Part shown: one piece after another, positions 10,714 through 51,819 of the stretch
How the letters are laid out: every line of letters starts with the position of its first letter
How positions within the stretch are numbered: position 1 is the first letter of the stretch
Source: Marchantia polymorpha subsp. ruderalis
Lineage: Eukaryota > Streptophyta > Marchantiopsida > Marchantiales > Marchantiaceae
Assembly (NCBI GenBank): GCA_037833965.1
Contig: AP031352.1
Span: forward strand, 24,284,501 to 24,348,500
Direction of reading: 5' to 3'
Length of the DNA: 64,000 nt
The notes under the pieces: generated by a model
What the model saw: the letters and a program-made list of their open reading frames with translations, nothing else
Databases searched by the model: none
What the model was told of the DNA's origin: nothing
Translations under genes and position numbers: made by a program

Positions 10714-11479
10714 TGTAAGACCGGATATTGCATGTGTGAAATAAAACTAGAATTAGCCAAGGAGTTAATCATGGTTAGGATAGTTATGACTAAATCTAGC
10801 TAGGTATGACTAAGTCTAGCTAGTTTAGCTATAATGTCTATACTTGGCGGAATAACTAGAGAAGTTCTAGAAGATTTGAGTGAGCACTTCTATTTTGTCT
10901 TGTACAAAAGTCTAGATTCCAAGAGAAAAAACTTTTGAACTTCATGTTTAGTTTTGATTGGTTTGACTAAAGTAAGGAGTATTCCATTGGTGAGACTAAG
11001 TCTAATGTTGACTTAGTGGAAAGTGGAAGTTCTAGAAGTGGAAAAGGCACAAATGGCATGTTGCCACCTCAATCTAGGGATTAATAAACATTTAGAAGGT
11101 TTAGGGGGCCAATGGCATGTTGCCACATATTGATAACTAGTCAACCTTACTATGGTTTATCTTCGCAAAAGTAAGTTAGATAGAAATTACCATTTGTTAC
11201 TATGGTAAATTCTCAAGTAGTATATATAGAGAGGAAGAGCCTCTCAAGCAAGTTTGGAGAGTTCATATGTAGAGACTTGTTTCATATATGAAAGAGTGAC
11301 GAATTTTCAATACCTTGGAGTGTCGATGAGTGTATGAGTTGGAGTGATACCTTGAGAGATTGTGTGAGAGGGTGTTTAGGTTATGAGTATGATGCGGAAT
11401 CCTAGTCTTCTAGAATCATGATGAGCTACCGAAAAGCCATCTGAGGTAAACCTGAGTGAGAGTCAGCCCGGAAGTTGCA
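10714..11479 (+). repeat. gypsy-1 5' LTR
   Basis: The 766-bp repeat starts TGTAAGACC and ends GAAGTTGCA. By eye it differs from its 3' partner at about five positions, so it is young but older than gypsy-2. It is a shorter relative of the 858-bp gypsy-2 LTR, sharing blocks such as the TGTCTATA..TTGGCGGAATAA phrase. Confidence 0.92.
11221..11228 (+). promoter_or_regulatory. LTR TATA box (gypsy-1)
   Basis: TATATATA lies 507 bp into the LTR, at the same relative place as TATATATA at 27,144 in the 3' LTR, and aligns with TATAAATA in gypsy-2. This is the expected U3 promoter core; transcription start is inferred about 30 bp downstream. Confidence 0.7.
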
Positions 11480-13722: not shown

Positions 13723-13879
13723 TGTGGTAACACACTTTTTGTTTTTTTTGCAGAATTTAAACAATTTTAGAAAAGAAGTACCGAAGCAGTGTCTGTAGTT
13801 AGGAAATGGTACGTTAAATAGAGTGGATTGAGGAGATCGTCACGAGGTCACGAAGAATCGCGGAGTTGGACGTACCAGC

Positions 13880-14760
13880 GCCAAACGCCTTCGGCGCCTT
13901 CGGCAATATCTCCTTTACTGAGGTGTCTCTACCCACGCGCCTCCAGCGCTTAGGGAAGGTACGCTTCCGGCACAGACACCTCCGAAGGAGATGTCGCTGA
14001 AGACGTCAGAAGCCGGCAAGGACCTCTGAAGGCTTCCGACCATGAATGCGCCGTTGGCGCGGGAGAGAAACCTTCATAACGATCAGGATTCACGGTGGTT
14101 CTAGTTGATTGGGGTCTCATTGAAAAGAGCTCGAGACGCTTGTTCTAACGAGCCCAAGAGCGCCGAAGATGGATCAGGGACGAAGAAGTTATGAGCGTCG
14201 GAAAACTCGCATCCGGACATGCGATGTTCGCGCTAGGGTTCACCGTCGGAAAGGACTCCCGTACGCCTTCGGCGGAACCACGCGCTCATAAGAGGAGATC
14301 AACTCAGAGGCGGAAGCGCCTTTGGCGGCTGCGGAGCGGAAGAGAAGCGCCGGCCGGCGGTACGCCTCCGACCAGGCGCGGACAGGCGGGTGTGCTGGCA
14401 TAATTCGCGCCGGCGGAATATGCGCCGTCGTCGATATGCGGGCAGAACGGACAAAACAAGCGGTACGACTACGCGCCGGCGTAATTCGCGCCGACTTGAT
14501 GTGCGCCTCCAGCGAGGCGCCGACGGAGAAGGAATACGCCAGCGGCGATACGCCTCCGGCGATGGGCAGGTTGGGAAAAGACAACATAGTCGACGCATAC
14601 GCTCCGCTGCGGCGAACTCGAGTCCGGAAGACGATGGCAAATTCGAGTCCGGAAGACGATGGCGGCGGAAGAATTCAACGTTCACGCATGCGAATGCGCG
14701 CAGTGCGGAGTCGTGAATTCGAGCATGCGAGGGAGAACCGTTAGGCCGTATAGCCGGTTG
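13880..14760. repeat. GC-rich leader of short palindromic CGCC/GGCG microrepeats
   Basis: Dozens of short motifs such as GCCTTCGGCG, GCGCCGGCGG and CGCCTCCGGCG follow one another, giving strong local hairpins. GC content jumps well above the flanks, which also creates long meaningless open frames on both strands (up to about 330 codons on minus). A near-exact 26-bp tandem copy (TTCGAGTCCGGAAGACGATG) is at about 14,620-14,670. Weaker CCTTCGG-rich versions occupy the same place in C4 (about 53,510-53,720) and C5 (about 42,640-42,870). Confidence 0.7.
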
Positions 14761-15105
14761 CGTAATCAAGTTTGATTGTACCCAGTGAGAGCGTTGGGCG
14801 ATCTTGAATTCGGAGAAGAAAAGTCTGCTCTCCAGTCTCATTCTCTCATTCTTGATTGTGAGTTTTCCAGCTTCAAAGATTACGCGCAAGGGCGGAGAGA
14901 CCTGCAGTGAGAATAGAAAGTGTAGAGACGAGTTGCGCGAGGATCTTGACGGACCTTGTAGAGAGTTTGCGAGCAGCGAAATTGAGCGCGCGAGAGAAGA
15001 GAGAGCGATTTCAGTCAGTGTCTGAGCGGTCGACGCGCAGCGGCGATTGTGAGAGATCGAGCGGAAGGCAAAAACGTCTGTGTGTGTGCAGGAAAAGCAA
15101 GAGAG

Positions 15106-17631
15106 ATGTCGAAGATCCTCATGCTGCGAGTGTCTCCACTTAGAGTGCCGCAGATCGGTCTGCGTGCATTCCAAGATGTGTTGACAAGGTTGAAGCTTGA
15201 TCTCCTCTTGTGGGGATGGAATTGGACGTGTCCGGAGATGGTGCGCGAGTATTTGCAGGAGAAACACAAGCCCTCGCGCGGATTCCGCCCACACCCCGAG
15301 AGGTGGGACATTAGCGATTGGGCGCAGGTGTTAGGAAGGTGTGCAGGCGAGGAAGGGTATCTCCTCTTCGAGGCCGAGAGCGTGAAGGTGTCGAAGGAGG
15401 AACAAGTCTCATACAATGATCTTTTCAAAGTTGCCAAGCATCCCAAGAACGGTTTCCGGACGCGGGATTACAAAGATCGATTGCGGAGAAATGTCGCGAC
15501 TGCATTGCTTCAGATATTGCAGCCGACCAAGACCGCCTACATGCATGGTTGGCAAGTGGGATTTGTGGAGCTAGTGTTGTCAAGAGCTCCGGTTCATTGG
15601 GGACGGCTCCTGTGGAAGGTGACGCGCCAACATGCGCAAGAAGAGAGAGGAGGGACCCTCAATCATCTTTCGCCTTACCTGATCGTGTTTTATCGAGCGA
15701 TGGGATGTTTGACGGCTTCAGAGCGGACACGGTTTCCGCTGCTGACCCGGAGTTATCCGGGTAGATACTTGCGGGAGGCTAAAGTGGACACAGATCCGGA
15801 CGAAGCACCTGTCAGTCCAACTCCAGCTCCGGCTCCAGCAAGAGCAGCAGAAGAGCGTCAAAGTGAGCGCGTACCACGGAAGCGGAAATGGGATGAGAGA
15901 CCTGAAGACAGGCAGCCGGAAGCTCCCGCTGCGCCGACTCGGAGTCGGCCAACCCACGAGCTTCACAGCCGGCCAAAACAAAGGGCACGCAAGATGGTGT
16001 TGCCAACTAGTAGTGAGGAAACCGGGCGTACTCCAGTCCGGCGGAGTATCCTGCCCACGCAGGAGGAGATAATCGCGCAGATTCTGGGGAAGTCGGTGAA
16101 CCCCTCTGCGCAGAAGGCGCGGATGCCTTCAGAAGAAGACAGTCGGCCGACTGCGAGTCGGGCGACTGAAGGACGGCCAACTGAGCAGCGCGTTGAACCG
16201 AACAACAGGCCGGAAGCAGAAAGGAGTTTGGCTGAAGAGCCAACAACTCTCAGAGGGTCGTCTTCGGCAGAAGGCGCTTCTGAGAAAACGCCTCCAGCAA
16301 GTCGGCCAAGTGAAGTAAAGACGTGCAGGCTGGATCCGACTGCCAGTCGGACAACTGCTAATCGGCCGACTGCGAGTCGGTCAACTGAGAGTCGGCCAGA
16401 TTCGCCGACTGCGAATCGGACAAGGCCGGCGACCATTGTGCGGGCGCCTTCGGCGGACACGCCTTCCGCGCAGATCGCGCCGGAAGAGCAGGCAGTAGAA
16501 GCGGGCGGTGCAAGAGTGACAAAAGTAACTGCGGCGCCGACCCCTTCGAGAACCGAAGATCGAGCCGGAACAGGGGCTCAGGCAGTGGGATCCCCCACTG
16601 CCTTGGATATTTTAGCAGGGAGTGGAGCGGCAGTCGTGGCGGAAGCTGCCGCGCGCCACAGTTCCAGGGAGTCGCCAAGAGATTCTGTGGCGACTGAAAT
16701 CCTCGAAACAGAGGATGAGACGAGTTCAGAAGAGCAGGAAGCGGACTCCGTGCGGAAGACGCCAACCGGGGTACTGTGCGAGCAGATCGTGCCACTCCTG
16801 CGATATTTGGATCGCAAGACAGCAAAGTATTCGAGTTGGTCGCCAGGCTCCAGAAAATCGCAGTCTTATGTGGAGATTGTCAAAAGCAAGACGAGGAGCA
16901 AGGTGGCCACTTGGGCCACTAGGTGCCAAACATTGCAGGATAGGTATACTGCCCTCCGACAGCACCTGGCGATCACGCAGAGGCTACACCAAACCCTGCA
17001 ACAACAGCGGGAGGATGTGGCGACGAAAGCCCAGGCGGATGCCGAGCTAATGCGGGCAAAGATCGAGTCGGAATTGCAGGAAAAGCGGAGACAAAACCGC
17101 ATTCTAACAGAGGAGCTTGCGCGCCAGACGCGCGCATTAGAGGAAAGTCAAAGCACGCGCAAGGAGGATGAGGAGTTGTTGCGCAACTTGCAATCCGAGT
17201 GCGCGGAATTGAGGGCGCAGTGCGTAAATGCGGAGATGCAGCTAGCAGAGGTGGAAGGCAGCAGCCGGACGCGAGAGGAGTTGGTGACGCGGGTGACTCA
17301 CTATCTAAAAGGATACGCCCACTGGGAAGTGGCGGCACAAGAGAAGATCACGCTCAGGGAGTTTGAGCTTCGGGCGGCGGCATTGACGGAGGGTGACAGT
17401 CGGAGTCGGCGGCGAGTAGTGAGGAAATTAGAGGCCTTCTTGTCGGGTGCGTGCGACACTATGGCGCACTTAGAGTCGGAAGTGACTGCAGTCCTTCAGC
17501 GGCTGGGGTTGCGCAGCCGGTCGGAAGATTGGCAGGGTAGAGAGAAAGTGCGAGGCAGTCCGGCGCGCAGGAGGCGCAGTACCGGATCTGCAGAGTGCAG
17601 TAGTGTAGCTTGGTTTCGTGCAGGAGTTTAG
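15106..17631 (+). CDS. C-family coiled-coil protein, intact 841-aa frame
   Basis: The start MSKILMLRVSPLRVP was chosen because other copies begin the same way (MARLIKVSALKVP in C1, MAPKKSEKVRKLVPLKVP in C2). An ATG 57 bp upstream is also in frame. Residues 1-about 205 form a conserved globular region (LLLWGWNW, W..VL.RCAG..G.LLFE, GWQVGFVE.VL, YL..FYR.M). Residues about 210-535 are disordered, rich in R, P, T and S, with PTASR/ATE repeats. Near residue 555 is a conserved VPLLRYLD motif, followed by a long coiled coil at about 600-730. The plan recalls plant 'putative gypsy-type transposon' coiled-coil proteins, but I do not recognise the family. Function unknown; it is the only intact copy of several in the window. 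Confidence 0.75.
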   Translation: MSKILMLRVSPLRVPQIGLRAFQDVLTRLKLDLLLWGWNWTCPEMVREYLQEKHKPSRGFRPHPERWDISDWAQVLGRCAGEEGYLLFEAESVKVSKEEQVSYNDLFKVAKHPKNGFRTRDYKDRLRRNVATALLQILQPTKTAYMHGWQVGFVELVLSRAPVHWGRLLWKVTRQHAQEERGGTLNHLSPYLIVFYRAMGCLTASERTRFPLLTRSYPGRYLREAKVDTDPDEAPVSPTPAPAPARAAEERQSERVPRKRKWDERPEDRQPEAPAAPTRSRPTHELHSRPKQRARKMVLPTSSEETGRTPVRRSILPTQEEIIAQILGKSVNPSAQKARMPSEEDSRPTASRATEGRPTEQRVEPNNRPEAERSLAEEPTTLRGSSSAEGASEKTPPASRPSEVKTCRLDPTASRTTANRPTASRSTESRPDSPTANRTRPATIVRAPSADTPSAQIAPEEQAVEAGGARVTKVTAAPTPSRTEDRAGTGAQAVGSPTALDILAGSGAAVVAEAAARHSSRESPRDSVATEILETEDETSSEEQEADSVRKTPTGVLCEQIVPLLRYLDRKTAKYSSWSPGSRKSQSYVEIVKSKTRSKVATWATRCQTLQDRYTALRQHLAITQRLHQTLQQQREDVATKAQADAELMRAKIESELQEKRRQNRILTEELARQTRALEESQSTRKEDEELLRNLQSECAELRAQCVNAEMQLAEVEGSSRTREELVTRVTHYLKGYAHWEVAAQEKITLREFELRAAALTEGDSRSRRRVVRKLEAFLSGACDTMAHLESEVTAVLQRLGLRSRSEDWQGREKVRGSPARRRRSTGSAECSSVAWFRAGV

Positions 17632-17675
17632 AGTAGCAAGTAGTGCAACGTAGTGTTAGTTAGGACCTTAGAGGG

Positions 17676-17705
17676 TATAAAGTAGTTCAAGGCGTTTTGC
17701 CTTGG
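17676..17705 (+). terminator. Poly(A)-signal-like site plus hairpin (C0)
   Basis: TATAAAG at 17,676 (AATAAAG in the other copies) is followed 7 bases later by a stem CAAGGC / GCCTTG around a GTTTT loop. The same module lies at the equivalent place in C1, C2, C4 and C5. It is 45 bp after the stop codon and probably marks the 3' end of the C-family transcript. Confidence 0.6.
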
Positions 17706-18334
17706 GATTCTTCCAGTTTCGGAAATGCAGATCAGGAACTCACTTTCTCGGCGTGTTTGTGCATTTGGTCCTGGCACCACGTAGAGGAGCTGCAGCATAG
17801 TGAAGTTACCGCATGTTGTAGCTGAAGGCCTTCGGCTGAATGTTCAGAGCTAGTACACCAGTTACAGACTTGAGTAGTGCGGATCTGCACCTGCGGGTGA
17901 TTTCTGATGCTCAGAGCCGGTTGCGAGTTAGATACTTGAACAGTTCCCCCTTACTCCTTCAAGTGACAGATCCTGATTGTACTCCTACGGGAAGTTTCCC
18001 CTGAATGCCAAAGTGAAGTTTTGTTACTTCGTGTAAACCTTGGTTATCAATTCAGGTTATGTGTGTGTGTTACTGGATTGTGTCTCAGTTGAGTTCTCAG
18101 TCAGACCTGTACTCTCTGCGCTTAGTGTGAGTCGAGGGTGACGTCCACCGCGTATGAGTGACTTCGTTCCGAAGTAGGAAGTCCAATCCGGGTTCCCTAC
18201 GCTAGCAGAAACTAGCGGGAGGGTTGTAAAAGCCGGAGTGGGAGTCACTTGTCATGTAGTTACGAGTCGGCCCACGCAGTTTAGTCACTTACTATCTTTA
18301 GAGGTGAAGTTAGGGTTCGGTCACGAGGGGTATA

Positions 18335-18500
18335 GAGTCGGGGACGGCTCGAAGAACGTTAGTTCTTCGAGTCGAGCCTAGAAGCGTTGGGAGCGTAGAG
18401 TGACTTTCCCCTTTGCGTCGACCTGGATTCTCCGAGTGTGGAGTGGGTTGGGCTTGACTCATGTTTGTGACGGTGACGGTTTGTTGCCAGTAGGGTAATT
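18335..18500 (+). repeat. Fragment of PHD-gypsy-type LTR
   Basis: About 165 bp matches 38,840-38,985, part of the LTR-like sequence after the integrase-PHD pseudogene. Shared phrases include CTCGAAGAAC, TCGAGC, AGCGTTGGGAG, GTCGACCTG and ATTCTC. The block contains a perfect 10-bp hairpin, CTCGAAGAAC-GTTA-GTTCTTCGAG (18,350-18,373), which is partly kept in the second copy. It links this region to the methyltransferase/PHD gypsy family. Confidence 0.6.
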
Positions 18501-20051
18501 GACCGACAGGAATTCCAGTGGGGAATTTCCCGTATATTTCACTCGAAGAACTCGTTTCTCGTCGGAGGTCGCACGAAGCCGACGAAGTCGATGAGGGTTT
18601 TTTTTCAAAGATTTTGTTCATTGGAACCTGTAGTTTGGTGACAGTTTTAAGAAGGCGCGGATGCATAAGAGCTCGGGAGTGGACGGCGGGACGGCCCACT
18701 CCTCACAAACCCCGTTTGCAAAATCAGATTCGACCGGATTCTCGATGGGGTTTCGACGATCATTCGTTTGTCTGTCCTGATGGATAATGGTCTGATGATT
18801 GTGTCGGAATCTGTAGGATTTTGAAATTCCCGATTTGGTGGAGGAATGCGCTACTCTCTTCGAGTTTCATCTCGTCTCTGCAAGCTTTCTCCGAGCGCAG
18901 AACCTCCGGCGCTCGTCGAATTCGCTTGTCCAATTCCGCGCTTCGACGCTTTAATTGGGTTCAGGAAAGGCCGAAAGAAAGAGTCGGTGGCGACGAGCAG
19001 ACATCAACCGGCCGAGCGTGAGCGTGGAGGGATAGACACATAGCGTATCGGGAGAGTTGTCGCAATTGTTCGTGATCCACACGGGGTCCTGTCGCGTCCG
19101 AGGCTACGAAGTGCGCTTCCCGCATGTCCGCGAGGATTGATTCGTGACCACGGGGGCTCGGATTCCCGTCCGCAGCGCGTGCATCGGGTCCAGGGTTTAG
19201 GGGGCGATGGTGGTGAATTTTTCTGGGGACAGCGCAGCGGTGGTCGGTTCGCGTCGCATCGCATTCATCCTGCCAGTACAGCGTTATATGGTAAATTGCG
19301 AGGGATGATGGATTGAACCCGGTGACATGTTTATTCGGAGGCCATCCTGATCTGCGTGTGCACCGCTCGTCCGTCAGCTGCTTCTTTGGTGCCGGGCTGG
19401 AATAGCAAAGACTGGGCTCAGGGTATGAAATTAGTGCCGGCGAGCTCGCAGCTCGAAATCGTCGGCCCGTGAGAAATTTATCGCGCACCCCATTAGTTGT
19501 TGGCAGCCCGGGCATGGGCCGCGGCGGTGCGGGGAGCGCGTAGAGAAATTACTGCCGAGGCGATCCCTGCGAGTCTTGGCCTGCGAGAGGCGAGGCGAGC
19601 GCGATGACGATCTCGGCGCTGTGAGAATTGCAAGCCCGCGGCAGATTCGTTCGCCTGGACCGACTGAACGAAGCTGCGCGTATGGCAGGGCGGCTCTAGG
19701 TCTAGTGGAAATTGCGGATTTTCGACTCTCGGGCTGTCGAGCGAAGGGACCGGAGCGGGATGTAAATGTTTGTAGCAGTGTAGATTCTGGTGCAGCTTGA
19801 TTTAAGGCAAGGGCCCGGCCGGAGGCGGGATTGATTGATTGCTCGATTCGGATGGTGGCGCACAGCTTAGGCGGATTTGAGTAGTGACTTGACGGTCCGG
19901 CTAGTGAGCACGCCCGGCAGGAAGGGAACCAGCAGGTTGGAAGGACGACCGGGGAGGTCCGTGGATAGGAGAATTGATTCCAGGATTTGAAAGGGATGAT
20001 TACAGAGTTGCGAGTGGCGATGGCGTAGAGCGGAATGCGCACGGGTGAACC
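18501..20051. other. GC-rich segment, possible 5'-UTR of the captured GDAP2 transcript
   Basis: No coding motif is visible, although GC richness opens long frames on both strands (a minus frame of about 256 codons at 19,431-20,201 has no motif). Because a GDAP2-like start codon follows immediately at 20,052, part of this segment may be the parent gene's leader carried along. That is inference. Confidence 0.35.
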
Positions 20052-20696
20052 ATGTACACCAGAGTGAGCACCCGGACTTCTGCCGTGGGAGGGGGCGAGT
20101 TCGTTGTGAAATTGGACCAGGTGCCGCGGTGGAACGAACAGGAGGGCCGTGCGTTCAAAGTTTCCGAGAGCAATAGAAGCCAAACCTCGTCTCCAGACCA
20201 ACTGGTTTGGCGAAAGTCACTAGTGGCTATGACCTGCCTGCAAGGCGTGTCATACACACAGTAGGCCCCAGATATGCACCCAAGTATCAAACAGCCGCAG
20301 AAAACGCCCTGAGTCACTGTTACCGATCTTGCCTCGAGTTGTTGTTAGAACAAGGCCTTTCAAGTATTGCCTTTATCTGTATTTACACTGAATCAAAGGG
20401 ATATCCTCGGGAAGCTACCGCCCATGTAGCAATACGGACTGTTCGCCGATTCCTTGAAAAATATAAGGAGAAGATAACAGCAGTGGTTTTTTTGCACTGT
20501 GACAACAACTGACACCGAGATCTACAAAAGATTACTTCCACTTTATTTCCCCCGAGACAAGCAGGAGGAAGACGTTGCGAGTACAAAATTACCCCCTGAC
20601 GTCGGGGATGAAAATGGAGAGACAGTGATAACTGAACGGAAAATCAGAATATCTGCTCTTCCTGGAACTGCACAGTCACCTCTAGTTTCAGTATAA
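20052..20696 (+). pseudogene. GDAP2-like: GDAP2-like macro-domain protein, cDNA-like fragment with deletion and frameshift
   Basis: Resembles plant GDAP2 (Appr-1-p processing/macro domain plus Sec14). The N-terminus carries VVKLDQVPRW. It is joined directly to the second half of the macro domain (TGLAKVTSGYDLPARR, VIHTVGP, TAAENALSHCYRSCLELL, AHVAIRTVRRFLE), then DTEIYKRLLPLYFPRD and DVGDENGETVI. The first half of the macro domain, which holds the ADP-ribose-binding segment, is missing, as if exons were skipped. A T run at 20,488-20,494 appears one base too long and shifts the frame before DTEIYKRLL. The Sec14 domain is absent. Its position inside gypsy-1 suggests capture of a host transcript. 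Confidence 0.8.
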
Positions 20697-20862
20697 AAAC
20701 AGTACAGTTTCAGTATACTGTTGTACCTCTGTTTTGGTGCTCTTCTAAAACTTTGTGATAGTTTTGGAGTTAAACAATTTTTAGTTTTCCCTTCAGATTT
20801 AGTTTACAGATACTCTGTAAACAATCCTTGTACACAGTGGAGTTTTGACTTGTGAAGAGAAA

Positions 20863-21213: not shown

Positions 21214-21310
21214 TAGCAAATACTTGTAGCGTTTAGATAGGAGTTCCTGAAGGGATCGGGAGTTTGCACCCGGTTTCACTACATGTGACGTGATGATTTG
21301 AAAGCATTGT

Positions 21311-21323
21311 AAATATATATATG
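21311..21323 (+). promoter_or_regulatory. TATA-like element of the methyltransferase gypsy
   Basis: An AAATATATATATG run lies about 540 bp before the primer-site-like motif, as expected for an LTR promoter. A 38-nt purine tract (21,393-21,430) follows it. This is positional inference only. Confidence 0.4.
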
Positions 21324-21579
21324 ACGTAGTCAATATATTGAGCTTTCAGTGTGTAGTGTGTTTGTTGAGGGGCAGTGTGACCCCTGTGTGAAGGAGAAAA
21401 AGAAAAAGAAAAAGAAAAAAAAAGAAGTTTTCAAACAATTTTTGTTTGCAATTTGGTGGAAGAGGGCATTATAGGCACTGGAGGCCCACGTAAATGGAGG
21501 GCGATGGAGATCGAATCGGGATCGCGAAGCGATGCGATGTCTCGTGTGTGTTGTCTTGTTTTGTGCTGTGTTTCCTTTA

Positions 21580-21786
21580 GACTGGAGAGTCGTTGCTAGC
21601 TTGTTGCTTGTGTTTGGGTCCTCTCCAGTCTTGCTTCCTGGTGCGCGCCCGTGTAGGGGTGACGCTGATTTCCGGAGTAGTTTTACTCCTGTGTGCTGGC
21701 GATAGGGGGCTGGACTTGATCACCGGCCGGTCTATCTATGTTTCTCTCACGGTGAGACTGGAGTGATGACCAGTAGACCGTGAGAG
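21580..21786 (+). other. Two perfect stem-loops in the retroelement leader
   Basis: GACTGGAGAG at 21,580-21,589 pairs with CTCTCCAGTC at 21,621-21,630, and CTCTCACGGT at 21,744-21,753 pairs with ACCGTGAGAG at 21,777-21,786. Both 10-bp stems are perfect. They lie in the LTR/leader region of the genomic RNA, where packaging or translation-control structures are common. Function is inferred. Confidence 0.55.
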
Positions 21787-21859
21787 TCTTCTTGCTGTGA
21801 TGACAGGTTAGGTTGCCCATACACCTTAGCTAGTAGGGCTAGAGTAGCTTAGTGCAACA

Positions 21860-21872
21860 CGGCATCAGAGGC
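21860..21872 (+). other. Primer-binding-site-like motif, initiator-Met type
   Basis: CGGCATCAGAGGC resembles the plant initiator tRNA-Met primer site TGGTATCAGAGC, with a few substitutions. It follows a CAACA that could be the LTR end. If correct, this element primes differently from gypsy-1 and gypsy-2. Confidence 0.45.
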
Positions 21873-22101
21873 AAATTGGGTTATTGGGTGGAGATCTGGC
21901 AGTGGTGCCAGTTGAGGTCTCGCCATCACGGAGCTGTCTAGTGGTCTTGTTGAGGACCGCGGGGGATTTACGCGGAGTGGATTGAGGTATCGGCTACCTT
22001 CACCTATTTCGCCAGTTGTTGCGGAGCAGGACCAGAGTGTTGCAGACAGAGAGTCTTTGGTGGTGATATCGTCTAGTGTCCCCACCCCATTGATTTGGGA
22101 C

Positions 22102-24927
22102 ATGGACGGAATGTACGGGGCCGCGAAGGGCCCTCGACGTTACTCTGGTGCAGTGGGCACCATCGAGCTTCATGATTTTATTCAGGAGTTCGACACGTGG
22201 TGTGATATGCAGTTTCTGCGTAACCCCACGTTGTTTACACCCTTCTTTGCATGGAAGGGATTATTCCAGCATTTGGAGGGGCCTCCCATGGACGATTATC
22301 ATGAGTTTGGGAGAGAATATGCTGTAGAGATTGATGCATGGAGACGGCATTGCTCTCCGAACTACTCATCCATTACCCACGGTGGTGTGGGTACCAGTGG
22401 AGCTGCGAGTATCGGCATTAGTGGAGGTGCGAGTAGTAGCATCAGCGAGGGTACCAATGGAGCAGTTGGCGCAACTGGTACTAGTACCAGCAGCGGTACT
22501 GTTAGCATTGCCGGTGGCAGCACGAGGGGAGATGCTGGTGGCGTACCTTCGTTTAGCCCCATTCCTGAGTTCTTCCAGAGATTGAGGAAGAATTATCAAG
22601 GGGTGAAAACGGAGAAGTTGAGGAGCCTCCAGGAGTTTGAGCGGAAGACTGGTGAGAGTCTTCGTGAGGCATACACTCGTATGCGACGGCTCATCTCAGT
22701 TACTCACGGTGTGACTGAGGCACAGGCTGTCCAGTACTGGTATCGGATCCTGGACAGAGAGTTGCGGAGGAGAGTGCGTGATGCTACTCTCATGAGCGAC
22801 TCATCACCCACATTAGCCCATGTGTTTGCTCTTTCTGAGAAGATTGAGCTTAACATGGTGGAGGAGAGGGTGGTGACGTCTACATTTGCGAGGGACACGA
22901 CCACTACCTCGCGTATCCCACATAACCTAGCACAGTCTCGCCCCATAAGTGGGAGTCGTGGAGGTCATACACGACATCCTTCAGGTCACAGAGAGCCTAG
23001 TGCGCGGCCACCACTGCCTTCATTTTCGGGTCAGCCACAGGGACCGTCATGTTGGACATGCGGAGGTAGCCATATGAGGAAGGATTGTCCCCAGGAGCGA
23101 GAGGGACAAACTCCACAGGCTAGGCCACAGCCGGCACAGGTGACTTGTGATCATTGTCATCGACCGGGTCTTTCTCGAGAGCGTTGCTTTGACCTTCATC
23201 CTGAGTTGAGATCTGGAGGTAGAGGTCGTGGAGGTGATGCTCCGCAAAACCGAGGTGGTCAAGGTGGTAGAGGTGGTAGAGGTACTGGGGCCATTGAGCG
23301 TACTGCAGCGATTGCTACTTCCGCCACAGAGAGCGCTATGGCTGCTCGGATTGAGCAGTTGGAGCAGAGGCTTGCTGCTATGGCTGGTCTGGGGGCGAGC
23401 ACTTCCACATCTTACGAAGGAGAGGATTTCTCCTATTTGGCCAATGCAGCACAGGTTGAGGCATCAGTTGCAGTGACCAGAGGTGGTGCTCGCACTTCAG
23501 AGCCACGTGGTGCGACTGTGGAGTTGGACCCTCAGAGGGGTGAGAGTGGACGTCAGTCTAGACTTCCCCAGTCCTTTTTGTTGTCAGAGGTGGGTAGCAG
23601 TTCATCTATGAGACCTGCACCGCCTAGTGACACTAGAGTGAGAACTGAGGTTCTTACATCATTTGTTGTGGACGCAGCCGTGCCATCTAGTGCAGTGATG
23701 CGGATGGTCACTGCAGTCTTGCGATCTCCATTGTTTTCAGCCACGGAGTTGATAGATTCTGGTATTGATTTGGCTCGAGTATTTCGGGTAGCAGCCACGT
23801 CGTGTGAGCATGGGAGAGTCGCTGCTACGAGTGCCGAGATACGTGAGGATATAGTTGAGGACCCATCCTCAACGTCTACATCGTTCGAGGAGACGACTTG
23901 GCAGGCCGCAGCGGCGAGGATGGAGTCCTTACCAGCTCGTCCAGCCATTGATCGCGAGAGTATTGTTCCTGGTGTATGTATGGTGGACAACCGAAGTGGT
24001 CTATTTCGGTTAGTGAGTTCTACTGGACAGGTGTATGTCCCAGCCAGAGTTTTGTTGGATTTTGGTGCACAGCCCTTGATGTTGGGCAAGGCTGCATGCA
24101 TTAGTTTGGGCATTCGGAGGTCAGAGTTGGAACCTTGCCCCTTCCAGATCCAGACATCCCTTGGTGGCGCCAGCAATAGGTCTTACTTTATGACCAAGGA
24201 GAGCATAGCGGTGCAGTTGAGGCATGATCACCCTCATGATAGCTCGCAGTTTGGAGTTCGTGCTGTGGTTACATCAGCAGAGTCATATGATGTGCTTGTT
24301 GGTGGAGTGGTGTTATACCCGATGGGCTTTCGGATGGACTATTGGACGGAGACTGCCGCATATCGTCCTGGTTGGCAGTCCGGAAATGAACGTCTGAGCG
24401 AGCTGCCAGTGAGATTCATTTCTCGGGATCGACCTCTTGGATCTTCATCAGCGGTCTTGGCATCTGTTGCGGGTTTTAGCGGAGTGCTTACTTGGCCCGA
24501 TGACTTGTTGGAGGGGAACATGACTGCCGACGATACCTCACTCTACGAGGATGTGGAGGAGGTTGTGGGTTGCACAGCAGCGGTGACTTCACCCTTAGAT
24601 GTTCCACTGTGGAGTTCGTGCCAAGCACTACAGTTGGAGGCTGATAGGTTGGTGAGAAAGGCTTGGAGTGAAGCCTCTTTACCAGCAGAACCAGACAGGG
24701 CTTCAGCTGATCGGCTCGTTAGTGGTTCTAGCGCATTGTCTCCATTGGTTACTACACCTATTGCATGGGAGTATTCCTCAGAGGCATTTGTTTGCTGGAT
24801 CTTTTTGGTGGAATCAGCACAGGTTTGGCTGCAGTGTTGCAGTCAGGTATTCTCGTACGGAGATACTTATATGTGGAGAAGGACGAGACTGCACGTCGAG
24901 TCTCTTCACGACATGTTGCACAGTTGA
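22102..24927 (+). CDS. Gag-protease polyprotein of the methyltransferase gypsy
   Basis: The first ATG of the open frame gives 941 aa. A capsid-like helical region (FFQRLRKNYQG, LQEFERKTGESLREAYTRM) occupies about residues 150-260. One short CX2CX3HX4C knuckle (CWTCGGSHMRKDC) is near residue 316, a second Cys/His cluster (CDHC..C..H) near 349, and an RGG-rich stretch follows at about 373-395. A retropepsin-like domain has LLDFGA near residue 651 (usual D-S/T-G replaced by D-F-G) and a YDVLVGGV motif. The serine/threonine change at the active site makes catalysis doubtful. The frame overlaps the methyltransferase frame by at least 163 nt, offset by -1. Confidence 0.85.
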   Translation: MDGMYGAAKGPRRYSGAVGTIELHDFIQEFDTWCDMQFLRNPTLFTPFFAWKGLFQHLEGPPMDDYHEFGREYAVEIDAWRRHCSPNYSSITHGGVGTSGAASIGISGGASSSISEGTNGAVGATGTSTSSGTVSIAGGSTRGDAGGVPSFSPIPEFFQRLRKNYQGVKTEKLRSLQEFERKTGESLREAYTRMRRLISVTHGVTEAQAVQYWYRILDRELRRRVRDATLMSDSSPTLAHVFALSEKIELNMVEERVVTSTFARDTTTTSRIPHNLAQSRPISGSRGGHTRHPSGHREPSARPPLPSFSGQPQGPSCWTCGGSHMRKDCPQEREGQTPQARPQPAQVTCDHCHRPGLSRERCFDLHPELRSGGRGRGGDAPQNRGGQGGRGGRGTGAIERTAAIATSATESAMAARIEQLEQRLAAMAGLGASTSTSYEGEDFSYLANAAQVEASVAVTRGGARTSEPRGATVELDPQRGESGRQSRLPQSFLLSEVGSSSSMRPAPPSDTRVRTEVLTSFVVDAAVPSSAVMRMVTAVLRSPLFSATELIDSGIDLARVFRVAATSCEHGRVAATSAEIREDIVEDPSSTSTSFEETTWQAAAARMESLPARPAIDRESIVPGVCMVDNRSGLFRLVSSTGQVYVPARVLLDFGAQPLMLGKAACISLGIRRSELEPCPFQIQTSLGGASNRSYFMTKESIAVQLRHDHPHDSSQFGVRAVVTSAESYDVLVGGVVLYPMGFRMDYWTETAAYRPGWQSGNERLSELPVRFISRDRPLGSSSAVLASVAGFSGVLTWPDDLLEGNMTADDTSLYEDVEEVVGCTAAVTSPLDVPLWSSCQALQLEADRLVRKAWSEASLPAEPDRASADRLVSGSSALSPLVTTPIAWEYSSEAFVCWIFLVESAQVWLQCCSQVFSYGDTYMWRRTRLHVESLHDMLHS

Positions 24928-25982
24928 TGCGGCGTTTTCCTTCGTTGTTGCCGCGATCAGCTGTCCGAGGATTCCAGAAGGCGTTGCCTTCAGACATTTC
25001 GTTGCTGGGGGCGCCAAACCTTGACCGCGTTGGCCATATTGATATGGTGATTGCGGGCTGGCCATGTCAGGGACACACACGCGCTGGACATGGGACAGGG
25101 TTGCATGATCCCAGATCTCGGATGTTTTGGGAGATGATGCGAGTGTTACGTCATCTCCAAGTGCAGCAGACACGTTCTCCAGCATACATTCTGGAGAACG
25201 TACCATTGTTGGGTGACACTCGGGCCCAGTTGATGGCGAGTGTCCATCAAGTCCGAGCATGGATTGGATCAGCAGTACTGTTGGATGCTGCGAGGGTTGG
25301 ATCACGGGCGCATCGTGCACGTTTGTGGCGGACCAACCTTTTGCCACGTGAGATATTGCGTCATGCCTATGATTCGGTGAAGCGTGATACTAAACTCACC
25401 GTTGACAGTATCTTGGATGTTTCCCGGCACTCTCAAGTAGTGAGAGTTGCTGACAGGTCAGCTATGGCATTGGTGAACCGCGTAGGTCAGCCTCGGATGG
25501 CTTTACCTACATTTGTCAGTTATCCGGCATCACACGCATATCGTGATGGAGGACCTGGACTACTATGGGACAGTACCCTACATCAGTTGGTGGAGCCCAA
25601 CGCTGATGAGAGAGAGCGTGCGATGGGGTTTCTTACTGGTGTGACCGCGGCTTCTTCAGTTTCAGAGGCGTCGCGTCGTCAGGTTTTGGGTCAGGCTATG
25701 GACCTGAACTGCTTGACGTGGATTGTGAGCTTGGGTTTGGCCGAGCAACGCCGTTTGCGCGCAGATTTGGTGGTTGTAACACCACTTATTAGCTCATTGC
25801 CTACCGGGACGGTAGTGGCAATGGCTGGGGGCGACAGGCGAGATATTCGTCATCCTTGGAGTTTATGGGACGTGACGAAAGGACTTGCCAGAGTTGCAGC
25901 CCATGCAGTTGGAGAGGATTCTCACGTGGAGGTGGCTACGAAGGAGGGTACGGAGAACCCTTCTTTGCAGTGTGTAGCGTAG
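24765..25982 (+). CDS. Retrotransposon-encoded DNA (cytosine-5) methyltransferase
   Basis: 405 aa. Transfers a methyl group from S-adenosylmethionine to cytosine. Visible motifs: I, LDLFGGISTG at residues 11-20 (SAM binding); II, acidic VEKD near 37-40; IV, AGWPCQGHTRAG with catalytic Cys101; VI, ENVP at 144-147; VIII, SRAHRARLWRTN at 180-191; and a C-terminal LGQAMD at 308-313 matching the region where DNMT3/DRM enzymes have LLGRSW. The AHRAR form of motif VIII resembles DNMT3/DRM, though motif IV has PCQ rather than PCN. All key residues are present. It has no regulatory N-terminal domain, and it lies between protease and RT of a gypsy element. Expression could use its own ATG (24,765) or a -1 shift from Gag-protease. 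Confidence 0.92.
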   Translation: MGVFLRGICLLDLFGGISTGLAAVLQSGILVRRYLYVEKDETARRVSSRHVAQLMRRFPSLLPRSAVRGFQKALPSDISLLGAPNLDRVGHIDMVIAGWPCQGHTRAGHGTGLHDPRSRMFWEMMRVLRHLQVQQTRSPAYILENVPLLGDTRAQLMASVHQVRAWIGSAVLLDAARVGSRAHRARLWRTNLLPREILRHAYDSVKRDTKLTVDSILDVSRHSQVVRVADRSAMALVNRVGQPRMALPTFVSYPASHAYRDGGPGLLWDSTLHQLVEPNADERERAMGFLTGVTAASSVSEASRRQVLGQAMDLNCLTWIVSLGLAEQRRLRADLVVVTPLISSLPTGTVVAMAGGDRRDIRHPWSLWDVTKGLARVAAHAVGEDSHVEVATKEGTENPSLQCVA

Positions 25983-25988
25983 CAACCA
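25980..25988 (+). promoter_or_regulatory. Candidate stop-codon readthrough site UAG-CAA-CCA
   Basis: The methyltransferase frame ends in TAG, directly followed by CAA CCA, and the same frame then continues without interruption into reverse transcriptase. UAG-CAR-YYA is the leaky context known from tobamoviruses, and this site fits it exactly. It could set the ratio of methyltransferase-terminated to RT-containing product. A chance nonsense mutation is the alternative. Confidence 0.55.
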
Positions 25989-26392
25989 TTGACAGTGTCG
26001 CCTCCCTCTAGTGTGCCTATGGAGGAGGAATGGGAGCCATTGATTGGTTCCCAGATCACAGGAGGAGAGAGGCGACGATTGACACAATTTCTACGAGACT
26101 ATAGGAGTTGTTTTGCTTTCAGTATGAAGGAGTTGGGTGCGTTGATTGGACCCGGTATACGGATAGAATTGGCTAGTGATACGCCAATCTTTAGTCGTCC
26201 TTATCGATACAGTGAGATGGAGAGAGATTTGATTCGGAGTAGGACGTTGGACCTACTGGAGGCTGGACTAGTGGAGTTATCGCATGGTGAGTATGCGTCA
26301 GCCACTGTCATGCCGGTGAAGAAGGATGTACATGGCAACTACACGGATAGGCGCATGTGTGGAGACTACCGTCCTATCAATCGGCAGACCAT
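25983..26392 (+). pseudogene. Reverse transcriptase N-terminal fragment
   Basis: In frame with the methyltransferase beyond its TAG. It has the Ty3/gypsy pre-RT and fingers region: ELGALIGPGIRIEL, FSRPYRYS, LLEAGLVE, ATVMPVKK and RMCGDYRPINRQT. It stops just after the DYRPINRQT motif, before the catalytic Asp and the YXDD box, where the gypsy-1 integrase tail takes over. It cannot be enzymatically active in this copy. Confidence 0.88.
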
Positions 26393-26613
26393 TCAAGGAA
26401 GGTGATTGGGTGATGCTCTTTGATGCAATTAGATACAAGAGAGCTAGGAAAAAGTTTCTTCCTAAGTATTTTGGACCTTTCATAGTTGAGAAGGTGTGGG
26501 AAAACATTACTTATGATATCAAGGAGTTAGGAGGACGTCACTTTGATCGAGTCAACCACGACAAGTTGAAATTATTCCATCGAAGATCAGATTCTTTCAT
26601 TTCGAGGGCGTAG
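26393..26613 (+). pseudogene. gypsy-1 integrase C-terminal remnant
   Basis: About 73 codons almost identical to the end of gypsy-2 Pol, starting at FKEGDWVMLFDAIRYK and including the GPY/F-like KFLPKYFGPFIVEKVW. It ends at the same TAG before the polypurine tract. No chromodomain follows. The catalytic core is missing. Confidence 0.9.
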
Positions 26614-26620
26614 TGAAATC

Positions 26621-26636
26621 TTGGTCCGGGGGTAAA
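26621..26636 (+). other. gypsy-1 polypurine tract
   Basis: The CCGGGGGTAAA phrase immediately precedes the 3' LTR and is identical to that of gypsy-2. It would prime plus-strand DNA synthesis. Confidence 0.7.
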
Positions 26637-27402
26637 TGTAAGACCGGATATTGCATGTGTGAAATAAAACTAGAATTAGCCAAGGAGTTAATCATGGTTA
26701 GGATAGTTATGACTAAATCTAGCTAGTTATGACTAAGTCTAGCTAGTTTAGCTATAATGTCTATACTTGGCGGAATAACTAGAGAAGTTCTAGAAGATTT
26801 GAGTGAGCACTTCTATTTTGTCTTGTACAAAAGTCTAGATTCCAAGAGAAAAAACTTTTGAACTTCATGTTTAGTTTTGATTGGTTTGACTAAAGTAAGG
26901 AGTATTCCATTGGTGAGACTAAGTCTAATGTTGACTTAGTGGAAAGTGGAAGTTCTAGAAGTGGGAAAGGCACAAATGGCATGTCGCCACCTCAATCTAG
27001 GGATTAGTAAACATTTAGAAGGTTTAGGGGGCCAATGGCATGTTGCCACATATTGATAACTAGTCAACCTTACTATGGTTTATCTTCGCAAAAGTAAGTT
27101 AGATAGAAATTACCATTTGTTACTATGGTAAATTCTCAAGTAGTATATATAGAGAGGAAGAGCCTCTCAAGCAAGTTTGGAGAGTTCATATGTAGAGACT
27201 TGTTTCATATATGAAAGAGTGACGAATTTTCAATACCTTGGAGTGTCGATGAGTGTATGAGTTGGAGTGATACCTTGAGAGATTGTGTGAGAGGGTGTTT
27301 AGGTTATGAGTATGATGCGGAATCCTAGTCTTCTAGAATCATGATGAGCTACCGAAAAGCCATCTGAGGTAAACCTGAGTGAGAGTCAGCCCGGAGGTTG
27401 CA
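26637..27402 (+). repeat. gypsy-1 3' LTR
   Basis: 766 bp, same length as the 5' LTR with about five substitutions by eye. It is followed by the target duplication GGCC. Confidence 0.92.
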
Positions 27403-33164: not shown

Positions 33165-33506
33165 CAAAAATTAGTCATTTACAAAAAGTACTTCAAGTTT
33201 TGAGAGACAATCAATTGTATGCCAAAGCTTCAAAATGTGAATTTGGCAAGTTGAAAGTAGATTATTTGGGTCATAGAGTTACAACCGCAGGAATCCAAGT
33301 GATGAGTGAGAAGATAGATGCCATTTAGAAATGGACAGCACCTGAGGATCAAACTCAGTTGAAGAGTTTTCTAGGGCTCACTAGATTCTATCGTAGATTT
33401 GTAAAAGGTTTTGCTCACCTAGCTCACACCTTGACTTTCATGTTAGGGAAAGGTCAAAACTGGAGATGGGAACAACTCAAGAGTTAGCTTTTCAAGCATT
33501 GAAAGA
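33165..33506 (+). pseudogene. Ty3/gypsy RT thumb / RNase H start, fragment
   Basis: Reads [52 protein letters not shown], with an in-frame stop in place of a residue before KWTAPED and another after WEQLKS. Insertion of C1 cuts it at the RNase H border. Upstream RT catalytic residues are missing. Confidence 0.82.
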
Positions 33507-36283: not shown

Positions 36284-36949
36284 CGCTGCTTCCTCTTGTT
36301 TGAGCTTCCGCACGCCAATCTCTCGTCAATCGCAAAATGTGTTCGTGAAATGTGGGCACCAAACTCTCAGCCTCCTCGAGTTTATCATACTGTTGCAACG
36401 GTTTTCCATTCGTGTGAATTGAAGGTGCCGCCATTCAAAATTCTTTCCCGGGTATCTATCTAAATTCTATTTTTTACTTCCATGGGTATCCTTCGCCGGT
36501 TGAGTCCTTGCGGGAACTCCGAGGTCTGCATCTGCGAATACCAAATACCCCCGCTTGAATACCCTACTAGGTATTCGGAGGAGATAGGTCTTTGTACCTC
36601 CTACCTCTACTTGACACTTCTCGATCCGCTCCTTTGGATTAGGACCTCGCCGACCTTTGAAGACCAACCGCTTCTACTGAAGTTCCTTCGGGCTTACTAT
36701 TCCTTCTTAACTTCTGGCGTAAAAAGACCTATTCTATTCTAATCTAATTACTTCTACTTTAAAAGTTAAAAACAACATGGATTTTCCGTCCTAACTACTC
36801 TATTTTTGAAAAAACAAAAAAACTGCACTACCACAGGAACCCATGCACTAGCTAGGAGGATGACACTTGAACTAGATGACATGGTGAGGTTGATGAGGAG
36901 ATGGTGCCCGGTTGGCATGCATCTGCCCTCATGTGTTTGTTGCGTGGAG

Positions 36950-38475
36950 ACTCTAGTAGGAAGGACCTCTTGACAACTTACTCTAGTCAAAGAGTGGATG
37001 TTCAATCTTCAGATCCTGAGGTTGAAGATGGTGCTACAAATTAGCGTGATATTCACGATGATGCCTTAGTATTGGAGTTCCTACGGACCACTATGGTGCC
37101 AGGCACAATGGGTGCCATGGAGCGAGATTGTGTTCTCCAACATGTAAAGAAATACCGATTGAAGGAAATACATGTTCTCTGAGTGTGGAAGGAAGGTAGG
37201 GTACAAGTAGTACCGCATCTAGCTCAGAGAGCGTGCATCGTGCGACATGCTCATGAGGAGTTGGGACATTTTGAAGTAAAGCATGCATACTACTTACTAC
37301 TTGATCAGTATTGATGGCGTGATATGCATACTCAAGTACAATAGTTGATATCACGTTGCATGGTTTGTGATCAAGTAAATACATCGTTCAATGCTCTAAC
37401 ACCAGATTACACCCATTGCCTATCATGATGTTGGTTTACCGTTAGAGTTTGGACTTTGCTCGACCATTACCTTTGATTGTACAACATCATCGGTATGTGT
37501 TGGTCATGGTAAAGCATTTCTCCAAGTGGATTGAGTTGGTGGCATTATTTGACAAGGCGAGTGAGCGAACAACGTATGACTTCCTTGACATGATGCTTAG
37601 TCACTTTGATGCATTAGCTGAGGTGTTGACCAATTAGGGTACAAAGTTTCAAGGTGAATTGTGAATCTTGTGTGACAATGCGCTGATTGATCACTGAACC
37701 ACGTCTCGAGATCATCCGAAGGCAGATGGTTTGTTTGAAGGTGTTGTACACACGGTGAAGAAGGCTTTGCGCAACTATGGCCTACAGAAGAGACATTTTG
37801 GAATATGCACTTACCATGGTTGGCTATGGGATATCGGTTCAGTAGTCAAGCATCCTTGGCTTTCTTCTCATCATATTTTTTGTTGTACGGTCAAGATCGA
37901 GACCTGCCGACATCAATTTGTTGTGAGTTTAGCAAGATGATGACATTGATGACTCAAACATGTGGATGAAAGTGTGTTCTCAATGTGTAGAGCTCTTTCG
38001 GAAAGTTATGTCTACAATGTTAGAAAATCTTGCGATTGCTCAACATAGAGATATGTTGCAGTAGGCAACCATTTGAGGAGGAAGTTATCGACCATCGATT
38101 CGTAGGTTTCATGTGGAGAACTACGTCTATCTACTGCAAACTGCACCGACAACATTGGATGTGATGGCAGGACACACTATTTTGCGAATGCGAGAGGTGT
38201 TATCTTCTGGAGTTCTCATGTTGGAGGGTCGTGACGGTGTTGTTTGGAAGTATCATGTGCGCAACTATGAGCTATGCCACCTTTCAAACGTGGATGGTAC
38301 TATGGACCCAAGCTTGGCAATAGTACGTGCTGGCTTGATGTGCATGCTATGTGGGTCAGCTGGTCATGCGACCCGTATGTTGGTGTGTGATAGGTGTTCT
38401 AGAGGATGGCATATGTCGTGTTTGACTCCACTTATCGATGATCTTCCATCTAGACGATGTGTTTGTCCTTGATGT
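36950..38475 (+). pseudogene. Ty3/gypsy integrase with C-terminal PHD finger, broken
   Basis: In several frames: an H2C2 zinc domain (VRHAHEELGHFEVKHAY, then CMVCDQ), the integrase core (RYVLVMVKHFSKWIELVALF; HPKADGLFE carrying the catalytic Glu), a C-terminal module (ILRMREVLSSGVLMLEGRDG, CHLSNVDGTMDPSLA), then a PHD-type finger CMLCGSAG..MLVCDRCSRGWHMSC. The finger's last pair reads CP-stop-C, so a TGA sits between the final two ligands. The usual second Asp region of the core is also destroyed. PHD fingers read histone tails; here one replaces the chromodomain. The wording fits the methyltransferase-gypsy family. Confidence 0.78.
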
Positions 38476-38650
38476 ACTTTGGAGTGATAGTTTATTTGAT
38501 CTTCACATGTAATGAATTGCAGTTGGGCGACTAACGATGGGGAGACATAGCATCTGACTTACTGTTTCGCGCACCCATGAAGATGTATGGCATGTAGTTG
38601 TAGATGTAGGGCTACCTGGGAGCCAAAGGGAACTGATCGACAACTAGGGG

Positions 38651-39110: not shown

Positions 39111-39171
39111 AAATATCATAAATAGCCATTATCATTATAAGATACACAATCATTTTTCATTTTTCACAGCA

Positions 39172-45686: not shown

Positions 45687-45690
45687 TTTT

Positions 45691-45707
45691 TGGTTCCGTT
45701 GCCGGGA
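45691..45707 (+). other. gypsy-2 primer-binding site, tRNA-Asp-like
   Basis: TGGTTCCGTTGCCGGGA starts four bases after the LTR. It is close to the complement of plant tRNA-Asp 3' ends, as in Athila elements, with two mismatches after TGG. Confidence 0.75.
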
Positions 45708-51805: not shown

Positions 51806-51819
51806 TGAAATCTTGGTCC

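What the first reader, a model, noticed from the sequence alone, without database searches (positions are those of the whole stretch)
21284..26392. A gypsy retrotransposon carrying its own DNA cytosine methyltransferase between protease and RT
Sequence shows a complete set of C5-methyltransferase motifs (LDLFGG, WPCQ with Cys101, ENVP, SRAHRARLW, LGQAMD) flanked by Gag/retropepsin upstream and gypsy RT downstream in the same orientation. An element that methylates DNA could silence itself or mimic host maintenance methylation after integration. Capture of such enzymes by retrotransposons is known, from memory, in Klebsormidium and Symbiodinium; a land-plant-like example with DNMT3/DRM-style motif VIII but a PCQ motif IV would be notable.
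Basis: partly seen in the sequence, partly recalled or inferred. Interest (0 to 1): 0.87.

Follow-up and report, generated by a model that had tools for sequence, protein, structure and literature searches.

The report
Liverwort retrotransposon carrying DNMT3-type methyltransferase
The stretch is a truncated copy of a many-copy liverwort jumping gene that carries its own DNA-methylating enzyme and a piece of a host messenger RNA; such enzymes were known in algal jumping genes, and here they are abundant in a land plant.

Summary
Window 24765-25982 encodes a DNMT3-class C5-methyltransferase between Gag/protease and Gypsy reverse transcriptase. This copy is dead: Gag-Pro and DNMT lie in different frames, the protease reads DFG where relatives read DSG or DTG, a near-invariant Trp is Arg, and RT is cut at 26388 inside a nest of other transposons. 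The family looks recently active: 103 scored matches (783 candidates) in the same 241-Mb genome, plus Sphagnum, Calypogeia, Riccia and metagenomes.

Three copies read whole have Gag-PR-DNMT, one stop, then RT-RNaseH-integrase-PHD in the same frame. The stop is UAG in 50 of 50 copies read and UAG-CARYYA, the tobamovirus-type readthrough context, in 48 of 50, also in a relative 48% identical. The DNMT is under purifying selection (pN/pS 0.24-0.32, lower than RT). Ends are split direct repeats with 4-bp target duplications, not an LTR pair. The window copy carries spliced host macro-domain-gene cDNA.

Closest known: KnitGypsy-Dnmt3 of Klebsormidium. New here: land plants, Gag-side layout with readthrough context, PHD, host-mRNA cargo, and a green-algal type with DNMT between RNaseH and integrase. 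The enzyme's role is inferred.

The parts
18250..18552 (+). A1 terminal repeat (5' end, TGTC...) of the DNMT-Gypsy copy
   Evidence: about 94% to the A repeats of two copies read with flanks; 40 scored matches of 506 candidates in the genome, 95-98% apart from itself; start position
18553..20834 (+). 5' region that differs between copies (cargo region)
   Evidence: no match between the same region of two other copies; partial matches of the window's region elsewhere
19586..20683 (+). spliced cDNA of a host macro-domain gene (C9:14.490-14.493 Mb), sense orientation
   Evidence: matches six separate host segments with five gaps of 141-1166 nt, GT...AG at the edges within alignment slack; Macro PF01661 in 20207-20509
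21497..26388 (+). body shared by the three 10-kb copies read (leader, Gag, PR, DNMT, RT start)
   Evidence: 96.8% to L033, 97.1% to L035; with L034 the match begins at 20835
21916..24927 (+). Gag (zinc-knuckle-like motifs by eye) and retropepsin open frame
   Evidence: Pfam Retrotrans_gag below its cut-off; 77% to Marchantia P0141
24058..24066 (+). protease active-site triplet reading DFG where relatives read DSG or DTG
24765..25982 (+). DNMT3-class C5 cytosine methyltransferase frame
25980..25988 (+). UAG stop followed by CAACCA (CARYYA), a readthrough-type context
   Evidence: UAG in 50 of 50 copies read, CARYYA in 48 of 50; also in L002
25983..26388 (+). N-terminal part of Gypsy reverse transcriptase, in frame with DNMT, truncated
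   Evidence: 53% to L002 ORF2
10714..11479 (+). 5' LTR of unrelated Gypsy element B that encloses the nest
   Evidence: 99.35% to 26637-27402, GGCC on both outer sides
13723..18249 (+). third, very abundant repeat (coiled-coil ORF 14986-17631) next to which the DNMT-Gypsy starts
   Evidence: 2540 and 1594 first-look candidates for pieces at its two ends
26389..26636 (+). integrase C-terminal end of element B fused to the truncated RT
   Evidence: 26389-26830 is 85.4% to 51581-52053 of the intact relative
26637..27402 (+). 3' LTR of element B
33170..33475 (+). decayed RT piece of a further family copy
36835..39113 (+). decayed RNaseH-integrase-PHD and 3' end of a further family copy
   Evidence: 37957-38484 73% to Marchantia P0069; about 79% DNA identity to L033 and L035

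Best explanation
Shown: the window holds a dead, truncated copy of a multi-copy liverwort retroelement with a Gypsy-type Pol. Copies read whole encode Gag-PR-DNMT in one frame, a single UAG in a tobamovirus-like leaky context, then RT-RNaseH-integrase-PHD; their ends are split direct repeats (A1 ... B1-A2-B2) with TGTC...GACA termini and 4-bp target duplications; the DNMT is DNMT3 class with conserved catalytic residues and is under purifying selection. Inferred: most ribosomes stop at UAG, so the DNMT is made as the C-terminal domain of the abundant Gag-PR product and is packaged at Gag stoichiometry, while readthrough gives the scarcer Pol. Inside the particle the DNMT methylates the new double-stranded cDNA, so that the copy enters the genome already marked; the PHD on the integrase may choose chromatin. 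Host mRNAs packaged with the element are sometimes joined next to the 5' repeat during reverse transcription, giving copy-specific cargo.
For: Copies: 103 scored of 783 candidates, 62 of 103 without a stop inside the DNMT by my count of the table. ORF1 1355-1361 aa, one stop, ORF2 1042 aa in 3 of 3 copies read whole. UAG 50 of 50, CARYYA 48 of 50; L002 same although 48% identical; in-frame CARYYA at 11 of 3686 positions of the two elements; consensus from PMC5382211 passage. pN/pS of DNMT 0.265 (29 copies), 0.315 (20 copies), 0.241 between them; RT 0.424 versus DNMT 0.251 in the same 22 copies, chosen for an open RT stretch. Catalytic Cys in 145 of 148 rows, ENV Glu in 161 of 167. Split repeats in 2 of 2 copies read with flanks; 4-bp TSD in 7 of 9. 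PHD found by Pfam in L002 ORF2 and Marchantia P0069. Spliced cargo, present at 98% at 3 further loci, two of them between an A repeat and a DNMT.
Against: No enzyme activity, particle content, readthrough rate or methylation was measured. The KnitGypsy-Dnmt3 domain gave no methylation in yeast, which its authors call inconclusive because DNMT3B also failed. Selection could act on a non-catalytic role, though catalytic residues are kept. Gag-level expression is not general: in P0144, and in the K. nitens gene model P0116, DNMT and RT appear without a stop, and type B elements carry the DNMT inside Pol. 2 of 50 copies deviate from CARYYA, and in 2 of 9 copies the expected 3' end was not found.
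Confidence: 0.6

Rival explanations
1. The DNMT limits the element: it methylates integrated copies or the host genome so that copies are silenced, a copy-number control that spares the host.
For: Proposed as one option by de Mendoza 2018 (discussion read). Many copies coexist in the genome.
Against: Purifying selection on the DNMT among copies is harder to explain if it harms the copy that carries it. No direct test made here.
Confidence: 0.15
2. The DNMT methylates competing nucleic acid (DNA viruses, other elements) and is kept because it protects the host cell.
For: Hypothesis of Morozov et al. 2019 (PMC6338049 passages read).
Against: The same passage ties it to the absence of such elements in land plants, which this genome contradicts; no data here on targets.
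Confidence: 0.07
3. The DNMT fold is kept as a nucleic-acid-binding or RNA-methylating module, not as a DNA methylase.
For: No yeast activity for the Klebsormidium relative (inconclusive).
Against: Catalytic Cys, ENV Glu and RxR are kept in nearly all rows; the closest folds are DNMT3A/3B, several bound to CpG DNA.
Confidence: 0.12
4. The stop between DNMT and RT is not read through; RT is made by reinitiation or from another RNA.
For: No translation data exist here.
Against: UAG-CARYYA kept in 48 of 50 copies and in a distant relative, with RT in the DNMT's frame.
Confidence: 0.12
5. The chimera in the window arose by template switching during reverse transcription, so that element B mobilised the DNMT piece.
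For: B's LTRs are 99.35% identical with matching GGCC around the whole nest.
Against: The DNMT-Gypsy 5' end lies exactly at its terminal repeat beside a third abundant repeat, and neither junction recurs among the scored matches (1 of 41; 1 of 40): nested insertions followed by one deletion explain it more simply.
Confidence: 0.1

Closest known systems
KnitGypsy-Dnmt3 (Klebsormidium nitens; de Mendoza et al. 2018, PMC5890265)
   Same: Gypsy Pol with a DNMT3-class domain; copies under purifying selection; the Fig. 4 legend says repeats are arranged as in DIRS elements although the domains are Gypsy, which is what the liverwort copies show. The K. nitens protein P0116 aligns to the DNMT and its tail to the RT start (E 2e-6).
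   Different: The paper places the DNMT in the Pol ORF; here it ends Gag-PR before a conserved UAG. Its held main text (no figures) has no hit for PHD, Gag, readthrough, chlorophyte, Marchantia, Sphagnum, moss or liverwort. DNMTs are 33% identical.
SymbioDIRS-Dnmt3 and SymbioLINE-Dnmt (Symbiodinium; same paper)
   Same: Retrotransposons carrying DNMTs; SymbioDIRS enzymes methylate CG de novo in yeast.
   Different: DIRS and LINE classes, no relationship with the Gypsy elements according to the paper.
Mammalian DNMT3A/DNMT3B catalytic domain
   Same: Best sequence and fold match, unrearranged motif order.
   Different: About 20-25% identity over the structure alignments; retroelement rows form their own branch.
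Host DNMT3 and DRMs of the same genome (L082, L083, L084; identified by motif order, by eye)
   Same: Same enzyme class; L082 has unrearranged order, L083 and L084 show the DRM rearrangement.
   Different: 18 retroelement rows split from these three and human DNMT3A with 100/97 support on 155 columns, so not a recent capture of the liverwort's own gene.

Membership tests
DNMT3 class of C5 methyltransferases | closest to DNMT3 rather than DNMT1/CMT, DRM, DNMT2 or bacterial enzymes | tested here: met
   PDB profile scores: DNMT3 up to 87 bits, DRM-type (4onj) 51 and DRM2 47, HhaI 35, DNMT2/TRDMT 31; no DNMT1, CMT or DNMT5 chain among the 57 listed; Foldseek's 50 listed matches all DNMT3A/3B/3C
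DNMT3 class of C5 methyltransferases | unrearranged motif order I-IV-VI-VIII-X | tested here: met
DNMT3 class of C5 methyltransferases | de novo methylation activity | not testable with these tools
   no assay
DRM | rearranged motif order | tested here: not met
   motif I precedes IV, VI, VIII, X; DRM-like genes of this genome show the rearrangement
Ty3/Gypsy | Pol order RT-RNaseH-integrase with retropepsin upstream | tested here: met
   Pfam order in L002 ORF2; liverwort pieces homologous to it and liverwort ORF2 of the same length and end; the liverwort ORF2 itself was not run through Pfam
Ty3/Gypsy | pair of long terminal repeats | tested here: not met
   split direct repeats A1 ... B1-A2-B2 in 2 of 2 copies read with flanks
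DIRS / PAT-like elements | split direct repeats | tested here: met
   definition recalled
DIRS / PAT-like elements | tyrosine recombinase and no target duplication (recalled) | tested here: not met
   rve integrase in L002 ORF2 and 4-bp TSD in 7 of 9 liverwort copies
KnitGypsy-Dnmt3 kind | Gypsy RT plus DNMT3-class domain plus DIRS-like repeats | tested here: met
KnitGypsy-Dnmt3 kind | DNMT in one ORF with Pol | tested here: not met
   UAG at the end of the DNMT in 50 of 50 copies read
KnitGypsy-Dnmt3 kind | DNMT sequences form one clade with the K. nitens copies | tested here: inconclusive
   P0116, the one K. nitens row, sits on a long branch outside both main clades

The most novel reading that the evidence does not exclude
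A green-lineage-wide kind of retroelement (liverworts, mosses, streptophyte and chlorophyte algae) carries a de novo DNA methyltransferase captured once, which later sat at two places in the polyprotein (before RT, or between RNaseH and integrase). The land-plant type loads it into its own particles at Gag stoichiometry through a conserved leaky stop, pre-methylates its cDNA before integration and reads chromatin with an integrase-borne PHD, while picking up spliced host mRNAs at its 5' end.
Probability: 0.35. Interest if true: 0.9.

Novelty: new variant of a known kind. Interest (0 to 1): 0.74.

Why it matters
[quoted passage not shown] Here they are abundant in a liverwort, a land plant though not a tracheophyte, and the best named hits put the genome in or near Marchantia polymorpha, an experimental model. 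That makes an open question testable: why would a retrotransposon carry the kind of enzyme hosts use to silence it? The Gag-side layout gives a concrete prediction (enzyme in the particle, methylated cDNA). It also adds methyltransferases that host methylome studies would have to account for.

Tried and rejected
Programmed frameshift between Gag-Pro and DNMT: rejected; in the copies read whole both lie in one frame, so the offset is damage in this copy. Bacterial contamination: rejected. Own LTR pair of the DNMT-Gypsy: looked for and not found; split repeats found instead. A second copy-specific segment (L036) matches a C2 locus with a 276-nt gap, but the boundaries shown are not clear GT-AG and a sister copy keeps the gap, so splicing is not claimed there. 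Six IMG/VR scans gave one locus, L001, a methylase on a phage-like contig. Plasmids gave four weak bacterial hits. Root of the DNMT tree and one versus two captures stay open: outgroups are few and long-branched; rooted on the window's Gypsy B the integrase tree puts type A inside type B on weak branches, which does not agree with the DNMT tree. Two rows I had labelled A for the DNMT tree, P0079 and P0099, fall in the B clade; P0079 has the DNMT directly before integrase.

Limits: selection used 29 of the 30 best-scoring liverwort copies (the window left out; 103 scored in all) plus 20 that I chose from the ~90% identical group; stop codons were skipped in pN/pS; copies for the RT and upstream comparison were chosen for open frames. 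Pairs of copies are not independent. Counts of copies are lower bounds, as the tool scores only the best candidates. Literature: 10 searches in an open-access library without bioRxiv preprints; 'not reported' is limited to these. Papers seen: PMC5890265 abstract, sections 9-11 and passages; PMC6338049, PMC12344493, PMC6453930, PMC9516144, PMC5784723, PMC10952607 and PMC5382211 passages only; PMC6317226 term search only, no hits; the rest as search listings.

Full report

This copy is dead. Gag-Pro and DNMT are in different frames; the protease triplet reads DFG where relatives have DSG or DTG; Trp at DNMT position 189, present in 169 of 171 rows, is Arg here; RT ends at 26388. From 26389 the sequence is the integrase end and LTR of another Gypsy element, B, whose LTRs (10714-11479, 26637-27402; 99.35%, K2P 0.0066) and GGCC duplications enclose the whole nest. 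Between 13723 and 18249 lies a third, very abundant repeat, and the DNMT-Gypsy begins at 18250 with its own terminal repeat. The 26389 junction is spanned by 1 of 41 matches, the window itself (665 candidates, 40 scored). The simplest history is B, then the third repeat, then the DNMT-Gypsy, then a deletion; this is inference. Decayed pieces of one or two further copies lie at 33170-33475 and 36835-39113.

The family. A protein search gave 123 relatives, 120 listed. Those with an organism name are Marchantia polymorpha, Calypogeia fissa, Riccia sorocarpa, three Sphagnum species, K. nitens and one protein labelled Candidatus Obscuribacterales (probably misbinned); the rest are unnamed. The window's own genome (241 Mb, 9 contigs) has 103 scored matches among 783 candidates; by my count of that table 62 of 103 have no stop inside the DNMT. 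Three copies read over 10 kb have ORF1 of 1355-1361 aa (Gag-PR-DNMT), one stop and ORF2 of 1042 aa ending like the PHD of P0069. A circularly closed 9.3-kb contig in a cyanobacterial bin (L002, probably misbinned) shows the same plan: Pfam finds the DNMT and a sub-threshold aspartyl protease in ORF1, and RVT_1, RNaseH, H2C2, rve and PHD in ORF2.

Leaky stop. The stop is TAG in 50 of 50 liverwort copies read (30 best-scoring, window included; 20 of the ~90% group). The next six bases match CARYYA in 48 of 50; two copies have CAACAA. L002, 48% identical in the DNMT, has TAG CAATCA. In-frame CARYYA occurs at 11 of 3686 positions in the frames of the two elements. UAG-CARYYA is the type I readthrough signal of tobamoviruses and others (PMC5382211, passage). 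So the DNMT should be made at Gag level and RT-IN by readthrough; this is inference, not measured.

Selection. Pooled pN/pS of the DNMT is 0.265 within 29 copies (window left out), 0.315 within 20 of the second group and 0.241 between groups. In the same copies it is lower than for RT (0.251 versus 0.424, 22 copies with open RT) and for the 500 codons upstream (0.252 versus 0.333, 18 copies with an open frame). In 209 of 210 polyprotein pairs the DNMT is more conserved than Gag-Pro (pairs not independent).

Ends and cargo. No LTR pair was found. Two copies read with flanks show A1 (~295 nt) at the 5' end and B1-A2-B2 at the 3' end, with TGTC...GACA termini. Seven more copies, picked because two A repeats lie 11-12 kb apart, were checked at the ends: 5 of 7 have a 4-bp duplication, and in 2 of 7 the expected 3' end was not found; with the first two this makes 7 of 9. 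This is the split-repeat plan that de Mendoza et al. note for K. nitens ('the same as that of a DIRS retrotransposon', Fig. 4 legend), here with an integrase and target duplications. Between A1 and the body the copies differ. In the window that region contains 19586-20683, which matches six separate segments of a host macro-domain gene on C9; the five gaps of 141-1166 nt have GT...AG at their edges within alignment slack: a captured spliced mRNA. It recurs at 98% at three further loci, two of them between an A repeat and a DNMT, so it moved on after capture.

A sister type. A search with P0150 found elements with the DNMT between RNaseH and integrase. Of 216 proteins collected in three searches, 47 read RT-RH-DNMT-IN-PHD, 39 PR-DNMT, and 6 have the DNMT followed by RT; 100 show the DNMT alone, the rest are partial forms. 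Monoraphidium neglectum P0193 is of the RH-DNMT-IN type. In the DNMT tree the bryophyte and soil-crust group (23 rows, 98/94) and the RH-DNMT-IN group (26 rows, 100/100) are separate, with P0144, P0116 and P0148 outside both. RT and integrase also separate the two types, but with only two rows of the first type, and the rooted integrase tree does not agree with the DNMT tree about which is nested. On 155 columns all 18 retroelement rows fall apart from human DNMT3A, the genome's own unrearranged DNMT3 (L082) and two DRM-like genes (100/97). This favours one old capture and speaks against recent capture from the liverwort, but references are few.

Function. Best guess: DNMT packaged with Gag methylates the cDNA. 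Supporting: SymbioDIRS enzymes methylate CG in yeast; against: the Klebsormidium domain did not, an inconclusive result by its authors.

Novelty. DNMT-bearing Gypsy elements are known from K. nitens. I found no report of them in land plants in the ten searches listed; one opinion paper says they are absent there. [quoted passage not shown]

Noticed in passing
P0150, P0154, P0193 and others: Green-algal and unnamed Gypsy elements carry the DNMT between RNaseH and integrase, with PHD (and in P0193 a sub-threshold Tudor) at the integrase end; the name of P0181 looks like a transcriptome accession (recalled), so that element may be transcribed.
   Followed up: partly
motif IV of type B rows: The catalytic Pro-Cys reads Glu-Cys in 33 of 51 and Ser-Cys in 8 of 51 type B rows while the Cys is kept in 51 of 51; unusual for C5 methyltransferases (recalled).
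   Followed up: no
window 44829-52686: Gypsy element, relative of B, with a 1590-aa open frame, LTRs identical at 857 of 858 positions and GGAC on both outer sides: a recent insertion.
   Followed up: partly
window 13723-18249; also about 34.3-35.8 kb and 55.4-60.4 kb: Abundant repeat with a long coiled-coil ORF and no Pfam hit (2540 candidates for one 300-bp piece); ORFs at the other two places look similar by eye, not aligned. Kind unknown.
   Followed up: partly
L002 (CADCWO010000201.1), P0037, P0165: Retroelement sequence labelled as cyanobacterial, Obscuribacterales or Minisyncoccia genomes: probably misbinned eukaryotic DNA.
   Followed up: no
L034 9007-9795: The 3' terminal repeat unit is tandemly multiplied in this copy, so repeat number at the 3' end varies between copies.
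   Followed up: no
L033, L034 and L035, B1-A2 junctions: The junction reads GACA-gc-TGTC, two bases between the two termini, like a two-end circle junction; may bear on how the split-repeat element replicates.
   Followed up: no
L036 2490-4000 against C2:23975300-23976600 and L066: Another copy's 5' region matches a different host locus; one copy keeps a 277-nt stretch that the other lacks.
   Followed up: partly
window 7259-8646: Tandem array of a 102-bp unit, 13.6 copies.
   Followed up: no
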